The notes below the pieces were generated by a model that saw only the letters and a list, made by a program, of their open reading frames with translations, was not told the DNA's origin and ran no database searches. From Wenzhouxiangella sp. XN79A (GTDB lineage Bacteria > Pseudomonadota > Gammaproteobacteria > Xanthomonadales > Wenzhouxiangellaceae), in assembly GCF_012272825.1 (NCBI RefSeq), contig NZ_JAAWWS010000162.1, positions 1-64,000 on the forward strand: DNA of 64,000 nucleotides. Direction: 5' to 3'. Positions 58,003-64,000 of the stretch are shown here, piece by piece. How positions within the stretch are numbered: the stretch's first letter is position 1; the number at the start of each line of letters is the position of its first letter. The position numbers were made by a program, and so were the translations under genes.

Positions 58003-58485
58003 TCAGCCTTCGCTGGCGGGTTTCATCTGCGATTGCAGGTAGTTCTGCTCGCCGAGCTTGTCCATCAGGGCAAGCTGGGTTTCCAGCCAGTCGACGTGGC
58101 CTTCTTCGTCGTTCAGGATCTTCTGGAACAGATCGCGCGAGACATAATCCCGGACCTGCTCGGCATACTCGACCGCGTCGCGCAGGTCGGGGATGGCCTG
58201 GTGTTCGAGCGCCAGGTCGCATTCCAGCAGCTCACGGACGTTCTCGCCGATGCGCAGCTTGCCGAGGTCCTGCAGGTTGGGCAGGCCTTCGAGGAACAGG
58301 ATGCGGTTGATGACCTCGTCGGCATGCTGCATTTCCTCGATCGACTCGGCGTATTCCTTCTTGCCGAGGATCTCCAGGCCCCAGTCGTCGAGCATGCGGG
58401 CATGCAGGAAGTACTGGTTGATCGCGGTCAGTTCGTTCTTCAGCACCTTGTTCAGGTGCTCGATGATGGTGGCGTCGCCCTTCAT
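58003..58485 (-). CDS. bfr: Bacterioferritin
   Basis: 160 residues, very like E. coli Bfr. Ferroxidase ligands in [30 protein letters not shown] with the haem-ligand Met (position 52), [10 protein letters not shown] and [14 protein letters not shown]. Forms a 24-mer iron-storage shell with haem at dimer interfaces. Confidence 0.97.
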
Positions 58486-59128: not shown

Positions 59129-60073
59129 TCAGCCCAGCTTGCTGGAGTCCAGCCGTTCCAGACCGGGGTGGTGGCGCTCGAGATCGCGCAGGATGGCATC
59201 CCCGATGCGCCGGATCGCCGGCGAGGTGCCGGTGCTCTTGCGCCACGCCAGGCCGATCCGCCGGACCAGCGGATTGCCCTCGATCGGCCGGGCCACCACG
59301 TCGCCGCGACCGTCGATCTCGGAGGCCACGTACAGGTAGGGCAGGAAGCACACGCCGGTGCCCATGCCGGCCATCAGGCGCAGTGCGTCGAGGCTGGCCG
59401 AGTCGTAGCGGGCGTTGATCTCGGCGCCGTGTTTCCTGCAGAAGGTGTCGATCTGGCGGTGGTATTGCGACCGGGCGCTGAACGACAGCGCCTCGACGCC
59501 CTTGAGTTCCCTCGGGTGGATCGGCGTATCGCCGGCCAGCGGGTGGTCGAGCGCGCAGACCATCAGCAGCGGCTCCTCGAACAGTTCACGACAGACCAGG
59601 TCACCGCGCCCGGCCGGCATCTCGGTCAGGATCAGGTCGTGGACGCCGTTGAGCAATTGTTCGGCCAGCGGTTCGGAAAAGTCCTCGCGGATGCGCAGGC
59701 GCAGTTGGGGGAACTCCTTGTGCAGCCGGCGCACCACCGGCGGCATCAGGTACGGACCGACGCTGGTCTTGACGCCGAACTGCAGCGTGCCGCTGAGTGT
59801 CTTCATCGCTTCACTGGCGTAGTCCTCGAGCGCCTGGACCTCGCGCAGGATGGTGTGGGTCCTGGCCAGGACTTCGCGGCCGACGGGCGTCAGCTGGGCA
59901 CCGCGCCGTCCGCGCTCGGCCAGCCGGACCCCGAGGTGTGCTTCGAGCCCATCGATCTGTGCGCTGAGCGACGGCTGGCTGATGCCACACTGCTCGGCGG
60001 CCTTCCGGTAATTCTCGCAATCGGCGAGGGCAGAGAAGTAGCGGAGCTGCTTGAAGGTCAGTTCGCGGGACAT
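59129..60073 (-). CDS. LysR-family regulator, OxyR-like but lacking the peroxidatic Cys
   Basis: 314 residues from the ATG at 60073. HTH in residues about 5-65 (FSALADCENYRKAAEQCGISQPSLSAQI), hinge and effector domain with OxyR-type SVGPYLMPPVVRRLH and LDALRLMAGMGTGVCFLP. By eye alignment E. coli OxyR Cys208 is kept (DTFC) while Cys199 is replaced by Gln, so disulfide-based H2O2 sensing is unlikely. Divergent from the PLP enzyme operon, a layout typical for LysR targets. Confidence 0.88.
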   Translation of the reverse strand: MSRELTFKQLRYFSALADCENYRKAAEQCGISQPSLSAQIDGLEAHLGVRLAERGRRGAQLTPVGREVLARTHTILREVQALEDYASEAMKTLSGTLQFGVKTSVGPYLMPPVVRRLHKEFPQLRLRIREDFSEPLAEQLLNGVHDLILTEMPAGRGDLVCRELFEEPLLMVCALDHPLAGDTPIHPRELKGVEALSFSARSQYHRQIDTFCRKHGAEINARYDSASLDALRLMAGMGTGVCFLPYLYVASEIDGRGDVVARPIEGNPLVRRIGLAWRKSTGTSPAIRRIGDAILRDLERHHPGLERLDSSKLG

Positions 60074-60223: not shown

Positions 60224-61369
60224 ATGACCGATCGAACCCGACTCCCGACCCTCTGTGTGCATGCCGGTCAGCGCAAGGGGCCGGCCGAGAACGGCCTGAA
60301 CACACCGATCGTCACCTCCACGGCCTACGACTACACCGGCGGCGAGGGCGTACGGTACCCGCGCTACCTGAACACGCCCAACCACCAGGTCGTGGCGGCC
60401 AAGATCGCTGCGCTGGAAGGTGCCGAGGATGCGCTGGTGTCCGCCTCCGGGCTGGGCTCGATCAGTGCGCTGCTGTTCGGCCTGCTCGAGCCCGGCGATC
60501 ACGTGATCCTGCTCGACGGACTCTACGGCGGGACTTCGGACCTGATCGACGGGCTGCTGGTGCCCTGGGGCCTGCGTCATTCGACCTGGGACGGCGATCC
60601 GGGCACGCTGGCGGGCCTGATCGAGCCGCGGACCCGGCTGGCCTGGGTCGAATCGCCGACCAACCCGCTGCTGCGGGTGATCGACCTGGCGGCGACCGCA
60701 GCCATCCTCAACGAACGCGGCGTGCTGGCGGCGATCGACAACACCTTCGCCACGCCGATCCTGCAGCGGCCGCTGGCGCTGGGCTTCGACCTGGTCATGC
60801 ACTCGGCGACCAAGTACTTCGGCGGGCATTCCGACCTGCTGTGTGGTGCGCTGGCCGGCTCGGCCGAACTCATCGACCGGATTCGCCCGGCCGCGATCCG
60901 GCTCGGGTCCAGCCTGAACGGCCAGGACCTCGCCCTGCTCGAGCGCTCGATGAAGACGCTGGCGCTGCGCGTCGAGCGGCAGAGCGCCAGTGCGCTGGAG
61001 CTGGCCCGCTCGCTGGCCGAGCATGCCGCCATTGCCGAGGTGTACTATCCGGGGCTGCCGGAGGATCCCGGCCATGCCATCGCGCGGCGGCAGATGGACG
61101 GCTTCGGCGGCATGCTCGGCTTCCGGCTGGCCGGCGATCGAGATCCCGGTCGGTTCCTGGCGGCGCTGGAGTTCATCGCGCCGGCGGTCAGCCTGGCCGG
61201 CGTCGAATCGACGATCTGCCAGCCGTCCCGGACCAGCCACGCGCGGGTCGCCGCCGCGGTCCGCGAGCGGCTGGGCATCGACGACCGGCTGATGCGCCTG
61301 TCGGTCGGCATCGAGTCGCTCGAGGACCTGGTCGAAGACCTCGGCCGGGCGCTCGGCCAGGCCGGTTGA
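60224..61369 (+). CDS. Cys/Met metabolism PLP enzyme (gamma-synthase/lyase family)
   Basis: 381 residues. TPIVTSTAYDYTGG, PLP-stacking Tyr in LLDGLYGGTSD, and Schiff-base Lys197 in HSATKYFGGHSD. It belongs to the cystathionine gamma-synthase / beta-lyase / methionine-gamma-lyase superfamily; the exact reaction cannot be fixed from motifs, although the N-terminal NGLNTPI and GLGSISALL residues fit a C-S lyase or synthase. Head of a four-gene operon with ATP-grasp and glutamate-cysteine ligase genes. Confidence 0.88.
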   Translation: MTDRTRLPTLCVHAGQRKGPAENGLNTPIVTSTAYDYTGGEGVRYPRYLNTPNHQVVAAKIAALEGAEDALVSASGLGSISALLFGLLEPGDHVILLDGLYGGTSDLIDGLLVPWGLRHSTWDGDPGTLAGLIEPRTRLAWVESPTNPLLRVIDLAATAAILNERGVLAAIDNTFATPILQRPLALGFDLVMHSATKYFGGHSDLLCGALAGSAELIDRIRPAAIRLGSSLNGQDLALLERSMKTLALRVERQSASALELARSLAEHAAIAEVYYPGLPEDPGHAIARRQMDGFGGMLGFRLAGDRDPGRFLAALEFIAPAVSLAGVESTICQPSRTSHARVAAAVRERLGIDDRLMRLSVGIESLEDLVEDLGRALGQAG

Positions 61370-61380
61370 AGGACCGTTCC

Positions 61381-62091
61381 GTGTCGCCCCCTGGCCGTGC
61401 GCCGCGGATCGAGGCCCAGCCCGACACCACGACCTGCGGGCCGACCTGCCTGCACGCCCTGTATCGGCACTTCGGCGATGGCATCGTCCTCGACGAAGTC
61501 ATCGAAACCATCCACCGGCTCGACCACGGCGGGACGCTGGACGTGTTCCTGGCCAACCACGCGCTGGCGCGCGGCTACACCGCCGAAATCCATACCTACA
61601 ACCTCGAGGTGTTCGATCCGACCTGGTTCGAGGGCAGGGTCGACATCGCCGAGCGTCTGCGCACCCAGGCCTGGGCCAAGAACAACCCGAAGCTGACCGT
61701 TGCCACGACCGGCTACCTTCACTTCCTGGCCGCCGGCGGCCGGCTGCGCTTCTCCGACCTGACCCGCACCCTGATCCGCCGCCTGCTCCGCGATGGGCAT
61801 CCGGTGCTGACCGGTCTGAGCGCGACCTACCTGTATCGCAGCATGCGCGAGTGGGGCCCGGACGACGAAGACGACGACATCCGCGGCCGCCCGGTCGGGC
61901 ACTTCGTGCTGCTGACCGACTACGACCGGACCACCCGCGAGGTCGGCATTGCCGACCCGATGGCCGGCAATCCGCTCGGCAGCCAGCGCTACCGGGTCCA
62001 TATCGACCGCGTGATCGGTGCGGTGTTGCTCGGCTCGCTGACCTACGACGCCAACCTGGTCGTGATCCGGCCGAGGAAAAACGCCGCATGA
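61381..62091 (+). CDS. Peptidase C39-like cysteine protease
   Basis: 236 residues from a GTG at 61381 with AAGGA eight bases before it (the stop of the previous gene is 12 bases upstream). Cys19 in QPDTTTCGPTCL, His174 in GHFVLLTDYD and Asp192 in GIADPM give a papain-like C39 triad. No transmembrane or transporter domains, unlike bacteriocin-exporter C39 domains. The stop overlaps the next ATG by four bases. Could cleave or condense a gamma-glutamyl or other peptide made by the neighbouring ligases (inference). Confidence 0.85.
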   Translation: MSPPGRAPRIEAQPDTTTCGPTCLHALYRHFGDGIVLDEVIETIHRLDHGGTLDVFLANHALARGYTAEIHTYNLEVFDPTWFEGRVDIAERLRTQAWAKNNPKLTVATTGYLHFLAAGGRLRFSDLTRTLIRRLLRDGHPVLTGLSATYLYRSMREWGPDDEDDDIRGRPVGHFVLLTDYDRTTREVGIADPMAGNPLGSQRYRVHIDRVIGAVLLGSLTYDANLVVIRPRKNAA

Positions 62092-63572
62092 AGCACTGGG
62101 TGGTGGCCGAAACGCTGGAGCCGTGGCTGACCGAACTGCCCGGCGTCGAGTGCGTTGCCGCGCGCGACTACCTGGCCGACCCGGCCCGTTCGGACCAGCG
62201 TGGCGTGCGTGTCTACAACCTCTGCCGCAGTCTGCGCTACCAGGCCACCGGCTACTACGTCTCGCTGCTGGCCGCCGCGCGCGGCCATCGGCCGCTGCCG
62301 TCGGTCGGCACGCTGCAGGACCTGAAGAACCCCTCGGTGGTCCGGCTGGTGTCCGGCGACCTGCAGGCCGCCATCCAGAAGAGCCTGAAGGCGCTGCAGT
62401 CGGATCACTTCGTGCTGTCGATCTACTTCGGTCGCAACCTGGCCGAACGCCACGACACGCTGAGCCGGGCCCTGTTCAAGCTGTTCCCGGCGCCGCTGCT
62501 GCGCGCCGAGTTCACCCGGGTCAACGACGAGTGGCTGCTGCGCCGCATCGCGCCGCTGGACTTCGCCGAGGTGCCGGAGGGCCACCGGGGCTTCCTTCAC
62601 GAGGCGGCGCGCCGGTATTTCGCCGGCGAACGTCCGCGCACGCCGCGCAGCAAACCGACGCGGTTCGACCTGGCGATGCTGGTCAACCCGGCCGAGGCCC
62701 ACCCGCCGTCCGACGAGCGCGCCCTGAAACGCTTCGAGAAGGCCGGCGCCGAGCTCGGGCTGGCGGTCGAGCGGATCGGCCCCGACGACATCGGCCGGCT
62801 GGCCGAGTTCGACGGCCTGTTCATCCGCGAGACCACCGCCGTCAACCACCACACCTTCCGCTTCGCGCGCAAGGCCGCCGCCGAGGGGCTGGTCGTCATC
62901 GACGACCCGGACTCGATCCTGAAGTGCACCAACAAGGTCTACCTGGCCGAGCTGCTGGCCCGCCACCACGTCGCCGCGCCGAAGACGCTGCTGGTCCACC
63001 GCGACAACATCGACCAGGTCGAAGCCGCACTCGGCCTGCCGGTGGTGCTCAAGCAGCCCGACAGCGCGTTCTCCGCCGGCGTGGTCAAGGTGCGCGAAGC
63101 CCGGGAGCTCAAGCCCACGATCCGCAAGCTGTTGAAGCACTCCGAGCTGGTCGTCGCCCAGGAGTACCTGCCGACCGACTTCGACTGGCGGGTCGGGGTG
63201 CTCGACGGCCGGCCGCTGTACGTGTGCCGCTACTACATGGCCCGCGGTCACTGGCAGATCATCAAGCACGACGGCGAGAAGGGCGCCGACGAGGGCAACG
63301 CCGACACGGTGGCCGTCGGTGAGGCGCCGGAGCGCGTGGTCCGCACGGCGCTGAAGGCCGCTTCGCTGATCGGCGACGGCCTCTACGGCGTCGACCTGAA
63401 GGAAGTGGACGGCCGCGTGCTGGTCATCGAGGTCAACGACAACCCGTCGATCGACGCCGGCTGCGAGGACGCGGTGCTGAAGGGCGCGCTGTACCGCGAA
63501 ATCCTGGGCAGCCTGCTCCGACGGATCGAGGCGCGAAAGCAGGGCCTGACCGCGGGACGCTCCGGAGACTGA
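62088..63572 (+). CDS. RimK-like ATP-grasp ligase with N-terminal RimK-like domain
   Basis: 494 residues. Residues about 1-180 match the RimK-like ATP-grasp N-terminal region (VRVYNLCRSLRYQATGYYVSLLAAARGH). ATP-grasp domain about 200-485: LPVVLKQPDSAFSAGVVKV, VVAQEYLPTDFDWRVGVLDG, and the Mg site VLVIEVNDNPSIDAG. Such enzymes form an amide between a carboxylate and an amino acid or peptide. Product unknown. Tightly coupled to its neighbours. Confidence 0.88.
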   Translation: MKHWVVAETLEPWLTELPGVECVAARDYLADPARSDQRGVRVYNLCRSLRYQATGYYVSLLAAARGHRPLPSVGTLQDLKNPSVVRLVSGDLQAAIQKSLKALQSDHFVLSIYFGRNLAERHDTLSRALFKLFPAPLLRAEFTRVNDEWLLRRIAPLDFAEVPEGHRGFLHEAARRYFAGERPRTPRSKPTRFDLAMLVNPAEAHPPSDERALKRFEKAGAELGLAVERIGPDDIGRLAEFDGLFIRETTAVNHHTFRFARKAAAEGLVVIDDPDSILKCTNKVYLAELLARHHVAAPKTLLVHRDNIDQVEAALGLPVVLKQPDSAFSAGVVKVREARELKPTIRKLLKHSELVVAQEYLPTDFDWRVGVLDGRPLYVCRYYMARGHWQIIKHDGEKGADEGNADTVAVGEAPERVVRTALKAASLIGDGLYGVDLKEVDGRVLVIEVNDNPSIDAGCEDAVLKGALYREILGSLLRRIEARKQGLTAGRSGD

Positions 63573-63573
63573 C

Positions 63574-64000
63574 ATGCCGACCCTGGATCCGCCCTACGAG
63601 ATCGAATTCCTGCACGCCTTCGCCGGCTACGGTATCGAGCTCGAATACATGATCGTCGACCGCGCCACGATGCGCGCGAAACCGATCGCCGACGTGCTGC
63701 TGCACGACGAGACCGGCGAGGTCGTCAACGAGGTGGCGCACGGCGACATCGCCTGGTCGAACGAGCTGGTCCGGCACGTCGTCGAACTCAAGACCAACGG
63801 ACCGGCGCCGACGCTCGACGGCCTCGGCGAGCGTTTCCACCGGGACCTCGTGACGATCAATCGGCGGCTCGAGACCGAAGGTGCCTGCCTGCTGCCGGGC
63901 GCGGCGCATCCGCTGTTCGAGCCGGACCGGGAAACGGTGCTGTGGCCCTTCGGCCAGAACGAGATCTACGCCGCCTACGACCGCATCTTCGGCTGCCGCG
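63574..64000 (+). CDS. Glutamate-cysteine ligase family protein (GCS2-like, 3' end beyond window)
   Basis: 142 codons visible; one base after the ATP-grasp stop. GYGIELEYMIVDRATM, AWSNELVRHVVELKTNGPAPTL, ETEGACLLPGAAHPLFEPD and ...IYAAYDRIFGCR match the GCS2/carboxylate-amine ligase family. Typically links glutamate to cysteine or another amino compound with ATP. Truncated by the window edge. Confidence 0.85.
   Translation, partial: MPTLDPPYEIEFLHAFAGYGIELEYMIVDRATMRAKPIADVLLHDETGEVVNEVAHGDIAWSNELVRHVVELKTNGPAPTLDGLGERFHRDLVTINRRLETEGACLLPGAAHPLFEPDRETVLWPFGQNEIYAAYDRIFGCR

What the first reader, a model, noticed from the sequence alone, without database searches (positions are those of the whole stretch)
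60224..64000. Uncharacterised peptide/thiol cassette: PLP C-S enzyme, C39-like protease, RimK-like ATP-grasp and GCS2 ligase
Four genes are packed with gaps or overlaps of +11, -4 and +1 bases. Two peptide-bond-forming enzymes of different folds, a soluble C39 protease without an exporter, and a sulfur amino-acid enzyme are together, next to a divergent OxyR-like regulator. ATP-grasp and GCS2 families make gamma-glutamyl or related amides; C39 proteins hydrolyse or transfer peptides. The combination suggests synthesis and turnover of a small peptide or thiol that is not classical glutathione (no gshB-type gene here). Identity of the product is inference.
Basis: partly seen in the sequence, partly recalled or inferred. 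Interest (0 to 1): 0.62.

Follow-up and report, generated by a model that had tools for sequence, protein, structure and literature searches.

The report
Conserved uncharacterised ligase-and-peptidase gene cassette
Four neighbouring bacterial genes, kept together in many distantly related bacteria, look like a system that builds and breaks down a small amino-acid-based molecule whose identity is still to be found.

Summary
The conserved unit is a papain-like C39 peptidase, an RLAN/RimK-like ATP-grasp ligase, a GCS2 ligase and often, here just past the window (64782-65540), an N-formylglutamate-amidohydrolase-like enzyme. The PLP gene is a neighbour only in this genus.

In Pseudomonadota the trio is rare (1 of 299). 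Catalytic residues are conserved. GCS2 is fused to the ATP-grasp in some genomes; RLAN ligases without GCS2 nearly always have a GNAT acetyltransferase, fused or adjacent.

The thiol idea is weak: the genome has true gshA and gshB elsewhere, and neither cassette ligase reaches a glutathione model. Best reading: a cytoplasmic make-and-break system for a small N-capped peptide, product unknown. Protein tagging is the main rival. The network is probably partly predicted by Iyer et al. 2009, which I could not read.

The parts
61381..62091 (+). C39-like papain-fold cysteine peptidase/transferase, 236 aa, GTG start; Gln13, Cys19, His174, Asp192
   Evidence: PF13529; residues invariant; fold
62088..63572 (+). 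RLAN + RimK-like ATP-grasp ligase, 494 aa; overlaps C39 by 4 bases
   Evidence: (PF14401, PF08443)
63574..64000 (+). GCS2 carboxylate-amine ligase, first part; the gene runs to 64815, and FGase (N-formylglutamate-amidohydrolase-like) follows at 64782-65540, both past the window on the same contig
   Evidence: (PF04107, PF05013)
60224..61369 (+). Cys/Met-metabolism PLP enzyme: neighbour, judged NOT part of the conserved unit
   Evidence: (no equivalog cut-off reached among the 25 shown of 50)
59129..60073 (-). LysR-type regulator, divergent; local neighbour only, role unknown
   Evidence: found again in G004, not in G002

Best explanation
A cytoplasmic make-and-break system for a small, non-ribosomal, N-capped peptide. 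Step 1 (inferred): GCS2 puts a gamma-glutamyl (or like) cap on an amino acid. Step 2 (inferred from fold): the RLAN/ATP-grasp activates the carboxylate of that compound and joins a further amino acid, probably glutamate, as RimK, LysX and ArgX do. Step 3 (inferred): the C39 enzyme, with an intact Gln-Cys-His-Asp site, cuts the product or passes its acyl group on, as the primitive phytochelatin synthase Alr0975 does with glutathione. Step 4 (optional, inferred): FGase splits off the acyl or glutamyl cap for salvage. In related systems GNAT takes the place of GCS2, so the cap would be acetyl. Shown: gene unit, co-occurrence, fusions, conserved catalytic residues, partner exchange. Not shown: any substrate or product.
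For: Unit: 59 of 80 wider loci hold C39 and GCS2 around the ligase, 37 of 80 all four (loci are the best 80 of 578 relatives). Co-occurrence: Planctomycetota 28 of 28 C39 genomes have ligase and GCS2, all on one contig; Bacteroidota 20 of 20 have the ligase, gaps -1 to 118. Where GCS2 is not adjacent although C39 is, 5 of 5 tested genomes hold it elsewhere. Fusions: RLAN-ATPgrasp-GCS2 in one frame of 1028 and 1021 aa; GNAT-RLAN-ATPgrasp; GNAT-C39. Ligase model nearest RimK and LysX/ArgX, Z 26. C39 model near leader peptidases (Z 16) and Alr0975 (Z 15). No small precursor ORF stood out beside the cassette. Precedent for GNAT+ATP-grasp making an acetylated dipeptide, with a peptidase in the operon: Ngg/NAGGN (PMC8070244, passages).
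Against: No biochemistry. In Pseudomonadota, the window's own phylum, 60 of 299 genomes have RLAN but only the own genome has this C39 and this GCS2 full length. C39 is absent beside ligase and GCS2 in L033, L063, L077, L102, L148 and L180, L181, so turnover by C39 is not obligatory or is done elsewhere. FGase is present in 36 of 53 loci with room for it. Four of 121 loci (L064, L101, L106, L116) and L170 have no partner nearby; three of these genomes have no such GCS2 at all. Similar folds do not fix substrates; a GNAT partner fits protein acetylation too.
Confidence: 0.5

Rival explanations
1. Protein tagging: the ATP-grasp adds amino acids to the C-terminus or a side chain of a protein, GCS2 or GNAT modifies the other end or the tag, and C39 is the eraser, as RimK/RimB act on ribosomal protein S6.
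For: Ligase fold nearest RimK; GNAT partners score just under the RimI model (84.1 of 86.4 bits for L168); a protease beside a RimK-like ligase is seen in rim and rlo operons (PMC12239564, passages).
Against: GCS2 enzymes known to me act on small molecules (recalled); no target gene recurs beside the cassette (one search found no further family common across phyla); the S6-ligase model is missed by far (27.5 of 331 bits).
Confidence: 0.22
2. A second low-molecular-weight thiol or glutathione analogue, gamma-Glu-Cys-X or similar.
For: GCS2 plus ATP-grasp plus papain-like enzyme parallels GshA, GshB and phytochelatin synthase; GshB is among the fold matches (1gsa, Z 21.2); a Cys/Met-type PLP gene is adjacent here.
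Against: PLP gene not conserved; neither ligase reaches a glutathione model; true gshA and gshB are elsewhere in the genome.
Confidence: 0.1
3. Ribosomal peptide (graspetide-like) maturation, C39 being the leader peptidase.
For: C39 fold nearest leader peptidases; ATP-grasp enzymes close lactams in graspetides (PMC8939145, passages).
Against: The leader-peptidase model PF03412 is not matched; small conserved ORFs beside the cassette were only all-frame echoes of a flanking gene (11 family loci, 900-base flanks); no exporter family recurs.
Confidence: 0.03
4. Mainly degradation: scavenging of glutamyl peptides or N-acyl amino acids, with the ligases in a side role.
For: Two hydrolase-type genes, C39 and FGase, in the unit.
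Against: Two ATP-using ligases with invariant catalytic residues are the most constant part; FGase is the least constant.
Confidence: 0.08

Closest known systems
Amidoligase gene neighbourhoods of Iyer, Abhiman, Burroughs and Aravind 2009 (Mol Biosyst 5:1636, PMC3268129)
   Same: Paper not held. PMC10318531 (passages) cites it for PF11814 C39-like domains fused to GNAT as possible peptide ligases; recalled: the RLAN domain and RimK-GCS2 neighbourhoods stem from it.
   Different: Could not check whether the C39-RLAN-GCS2-FGase order, the fusions or the GCS2/GNAT exchange are in it.
Glutathione synthesis with phytochelatin-synthase-like turnover (GshA, GshB, Alr0975)
   Same: Same enzyme kinds in the same logical order: GCS2 ligase, ATP-grasp ligase, papain-like peptidase.
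   Different: No glutathione model cut-off is met; the genome makes glutathione with other genes.
NAGGN operon (AsnO, Ngg, M42 peptidase)
   Same: GNAT plus ATP-grasp build an acetylated dipeptide and a peptidase gene is in the operon (PMC8070244); GNAT-RLAN fusions look alike in layout.
   Different: TIGR03103 is not met; no amidotransferase recurs here.
RimK/RimB and rlo operons
   Same: RimK-like ATP-grasp with a protease (PMC12239564).
   Different: Protease is retropepsin-like there, papain-like here; no GCS2 there.

Membership tests
RLAN/RimK-like ATP-grasp proteins (PF14401 + PF08443) | both Pfam cut-offs reached | tested here: met
   160.5 of 25 and 39.1 of 21 bits
GCS2 family (PF04107) | Pfam cut-off reached | tested here: met
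   94.1 of 21 bits
FGase family (PF05013) | Pfam cut-off reached | tested here: met
   90.4 of 28.9 bits; activity untested
C39-like peptidases (PF13529) | Pfam cut-off reached and Cys-His-Asp site kept | tested here: met
   35.8 of 24 bits; Cys19 64/64, His174 66/66, Asp192 66/66
C39 leader peptidase of ABC exporters (PF03412) | PF03412 match | tested here: not met
   not among matches at E 0.001, though the fold is near
DUF3335 C39-like family (PF11814) | PF11814 match | tested here: not met
   no match for the window protein; GNAT-fused cousins L114, L168, L119 match
Phytochelatin synthase (PF05023) | PF05023 match | tested here: not met
   no match at E 0.001; fold of Alr0975 near, Z 15.3, rmsd 2.6, 161 aligned
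Glutathione synthesis GshA/GshB | NCBIfam equivalog cut-offs | tested here: not met
   GCS2: TIGR02048 31.3 of 249; ATP-grasp: NF003573 22.5 of 272. Met by other genes of the genome: TIGR01436 684 of 463, NF003573 392 of 272
RimK ribosomal S6 ligase | NF007764 cut-off | tested here: not met
   27.5 of 331 bits
N-acetylglutaminylglutamine synthetase (TIGR03103) | model cut-off, tried on the GNAT-bearing relatives | tested here: not met
   L171, L141: no match at 1e-5; L168: 30 of 569 bits, GNAT part only
Graspetide system | precursor peptide gene nearby | tested here: inconclusive
   none seen in 11 family loci, simple ORF comparison
Small-peptide synthesis pathway | product made by the two ligases | not testable with these tools
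   needs enzymes and LC-MS

The most novel reading that the evidence does not exclude
The RLAN ligase is the core of an unrecognised, phylum-spanning family of pathways that each make a capped small peptide, with the capping enzyme exchanged between non-homologous GCS2 (gamma-glutamyl) and GNAT (acetyl) and with a dedicated papain-like enzyme for turnover; the GCS2 branch makes a new gamma-glutamyl peptide metabolite kept alongside glutathione, perhaps an osmolyte or nitrogen/redox buffer.
Probability: 0.33. Interest if true: 0.75.

Novelty: new variant of a known kind. Interest (0 to 1): 0.5.

Why it matters
If right, a small metabolite common to planctomycetes, Bacteroidota, Verrucomicrobia, Deltaproteobacteria and others awaits discovery, and its enzymes are now a defined, testable set of four genes, including in named cultured strains such as Pontibacter ruber, Rufibacter glacialis and Blastopirellula marina DSM 3645. 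The exchange of GCS2 for GNAT beside one ligase lineage gives a handle on the chemistry: both should do the same job for the product. If it is protein tagging instead, it would be a new writer-eraser pair.

Tried and rejected
PLP enzyme as a pathway member: rejected. Thiol product: weakened. Ngg-type NAGGN synthesis: not a member. Ribosomal precursor peptide: none seen (the shared short ORFs are echoes in several frames of a flanking gene, and the test covered 11 family loci only). Other partners common across phyla: none in the clustering of neighbours over 80 loci (small families and antisense ORFs make it coarse, and several listed clusters are synteny within Pontibacter). The first clustering of the 40 regions lumped GNAT-C39 and GNAT-only genes; its figure of 35 of 40 is superseded. 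RLAN domain fold: not tested, since the fold search was filled by the ATP-grasp part; the model is moderate there (pTM 0.62). Weak hits of the C39 and GCS2 profiles in Pseudomonadota (4 and 69 genomes at E 0.001) are partial and I did not count them as members. Literature: searches found no paper; some searches gave listings, of which I looked at passages in PMC12239564, PMC4431377, PMC8070244, PMC10318531 and PMC8939145; no whole paper or whole section was read. The library holds open-licence papers only, so absence there says little. Statements marked recalled come from no call.
Full report
What is there. The window is contig C45:1-64000 of a 3.75 Mb genome in 171 contigs. The contig goes on to 67304: GCS2 ends at 64815 and a further gene on the same strand, FGase (N-formylglutamate amidohydrolase family), runs 64782-65540.

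What the unit is. In these 80 loci C39 lies beside the ligase in 65, GCS2 in 63, both in 59, FGase in 39, all four in 37; with enough DNA to hold them, C39 in 63 of 77, GCS2 in 58 of 74, FGase in 36 of 53. The order C39, ligase, GCS2, FGase on one strand is the same as here. By record titles, loci with C39 and GCS2 come from Gammaproteobacteria, Planctomycetota, Bacteroidota, Verrucomicrobia, deltaproteobacterial groups, Tectomicrobia, Krumholzibacteriia, Ignavibacteriae, Sumerlaeota, Hydrogenedentota, Nitrospinota and Chitinispirillaceae; many are metagenome-assembled genomes.

Co-occurrence in samples not chosen by likeness to the window. Planctomycetota, 148 genomes, E up to 1e-20: C39 in 28, ligase in 40, GCS2 in 32; all 28 C39 genomes have both others, all three on one contig, C39-ligase gaps 1 to 2353 bases (27 of 28 at most 437), ligase-GCS2 gaps -4 to 210; Fisher p 4e-21 and 3e-26, which ignore kinship. 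Bacteroidota, 247 genomes: C39 in 20, ligase in 31, all 20 with C39 have the ligase, gaps -1 to 118, p 6e-22; GCS2 was not searched there. Pseudomonadota, 299 genomes: RLAN in 60, but full-length C39 and GCS2 of this kind only in the window's own genome: in its own phylum the trio is rare. In the window's family RLAN is in 19 of 37 genomes (G000-G036); of 13 family loci fetched, 13 hold C39, 12 GCS2 and 13 FGase (one cut by the contig end), and of two more, L152 has all four and L148 lacks C39.

The PLP gene is not part of it. It stands beside C39 in the window and in two more genomes of the genus (L153, L154), but in none of 8 loci of other genera of the family with several kilobases upstream (L157-L162, L164, L165), and in the 80 wider loci only three copies occur, kilobases away. 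The LysR gene recurs in L153, not in L154.

Partner exchange. The 40 further RLAN regions (35 of the 63 places, hand-picked for spread, and 5) together with the 80 loci and the window make 121. Within 5 kb of the ligase: C39 and GCS2 61; C39 only 6; GCS2 only 5; a GNAT-C39 fusion 23; GNAT without C39 22; none of these 4. So 111 of 121 have GCS2 or GNAT beside the ligase. Of the 6 with C39 only, 5 genomes could be searched and all 5 hold a GCS2 of this clade elsewhere, E below 1e-150; of 3 'none' genomes searched, none does. The C39 part of the GNAT fusion is PF11814, whose fusion to GNAT is in print (PMC10318531, passages). Fusions: RLAN-ATPgrasp-GCS2 in single frames of 1028 and 1021 aa (L166, L167; a third, G414, looks the same from coordinates alone); GNAT-RLAN-ATPgrasp in L141, L171, L172-L179 and L183 (L177 is the weakest). 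The 9 Planctomycetota genomes with ligase but no GCS2 have GNAT in 8 (3 GNAT-C39, 2 fused, 3 adjacent, two of these with a ligase split over ORFs) and nothing in 1, L170; the 11 Bacteroidota genomes with ligase but no C39 have a GNAT fusion in 8, GNAT-C39 in 1, GCS2 and FGase in 2. In a quick maximum-likelihood tree of the 121 ligases all C39/GCS2-type rows fall in one group of 83 (SH-aLRT 100), which also holds 8 GNAT-only and 3 partnerless rows; the fewest changes between GCS2-type and GNAT-type partner are 3.

Enzymes. C39: Gln13, Cys19 64 of 64, His174, Asp192 66 of 66, the papain set (recalled). Model pLDDT 93.6; Z 16.1 (rmsd 2.2, 138 aligned) to a double-glycine leader peptidase, Z 15.3 (2.6, 161 aligned) to the glutathione acyl-enzyme of Alr0975, about 11 to plant papain-like enzymes. 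By sequence no solved structure is close. Ligase: Lys283, Lys322, Glu448, Asn450 in 81 of 81; model pLDDT 83.9; residues 193-482 match RimK (7qyr, Z 26.4, rmsd 2.5, 267 aligned) and LysX/ArgX (5k2m, Z 26.4, rmsd 2.4, 260 aligned), GshB lower (Z 21.2); the RLAN part was not tested. GCS2: Glu22, Glu24 in 64 of 64; all NCBIfam GCS2-type models far under cut-off. FGase: Glu15, His16, His39, Asp43, His123, His127 in 40 of 40; nearest solved relative is a protein of unknown role (2odf).

Reading. Two ligases that never reach known-function models, tied by order, by co-occurrence even when unlinked, and by fusion, with a papain-like enzyme and often a deacylase-like one: the plainest account is a cytoplasmic cycle that makes and breaks one small capped peptide. 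That GNAT replaces GCS2 beside the same ligase lineage suggests that both cap an amino group, and the acetylated-dipeptide pathway of Ngg, which has GNAT and ATP-grasp activity and a peptidase in its operon, shows that such a cycle exists (PMC8070244, passages). Glutathione itself is excluded as the cassette's main job. Tagging of a protein stays possible, because the ligase is RimK-like. Nothing here shows a substrate.

Novelty. The families are catalogued, and the wider network is probably partly in Iyer et al. 2009, which is not held. I therefore file it as a new variant of a known kind (amidoligase cassettes of unknown product), with the fourth gene, the phylum-wide linkage figures, the fusions and the GCS2/GNAT exchange as what is added here.

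Noticed in passing
L003:11812-13257 (window 65812-67257): An ORF that reads by eye like an RHS-repeat core protein follows FGase at the contig end.
   Followed up: no
L107:738-6270: In a verrucomicrobial contig the RLAN ligase sits with GNAT among genes that read by eye like argininosuccinate synthase and DapA, an amino-acid synthesis setting.
   Followed up: partly
L030 (also L155): GCS2 is missing between ligase and FGase in a close relative, yet the genome holds it on another contig.
   Followed up: partly
G117, G121, G196: Three class relatives of one genus carry two RLAN ligases each; in G121 one is beside a GNAT-C39 fusion (L114), the other beside GNAT alone (L115).
   Followed up: partly
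window 58003-58485: Bacterioferritin-like ORF near the LysR gene, named by eye.
   Followed up: no
L148, L180, L181: Loci with ligase, GCS2 and FGase in order but no C39 found beside them.
   Followed up: no
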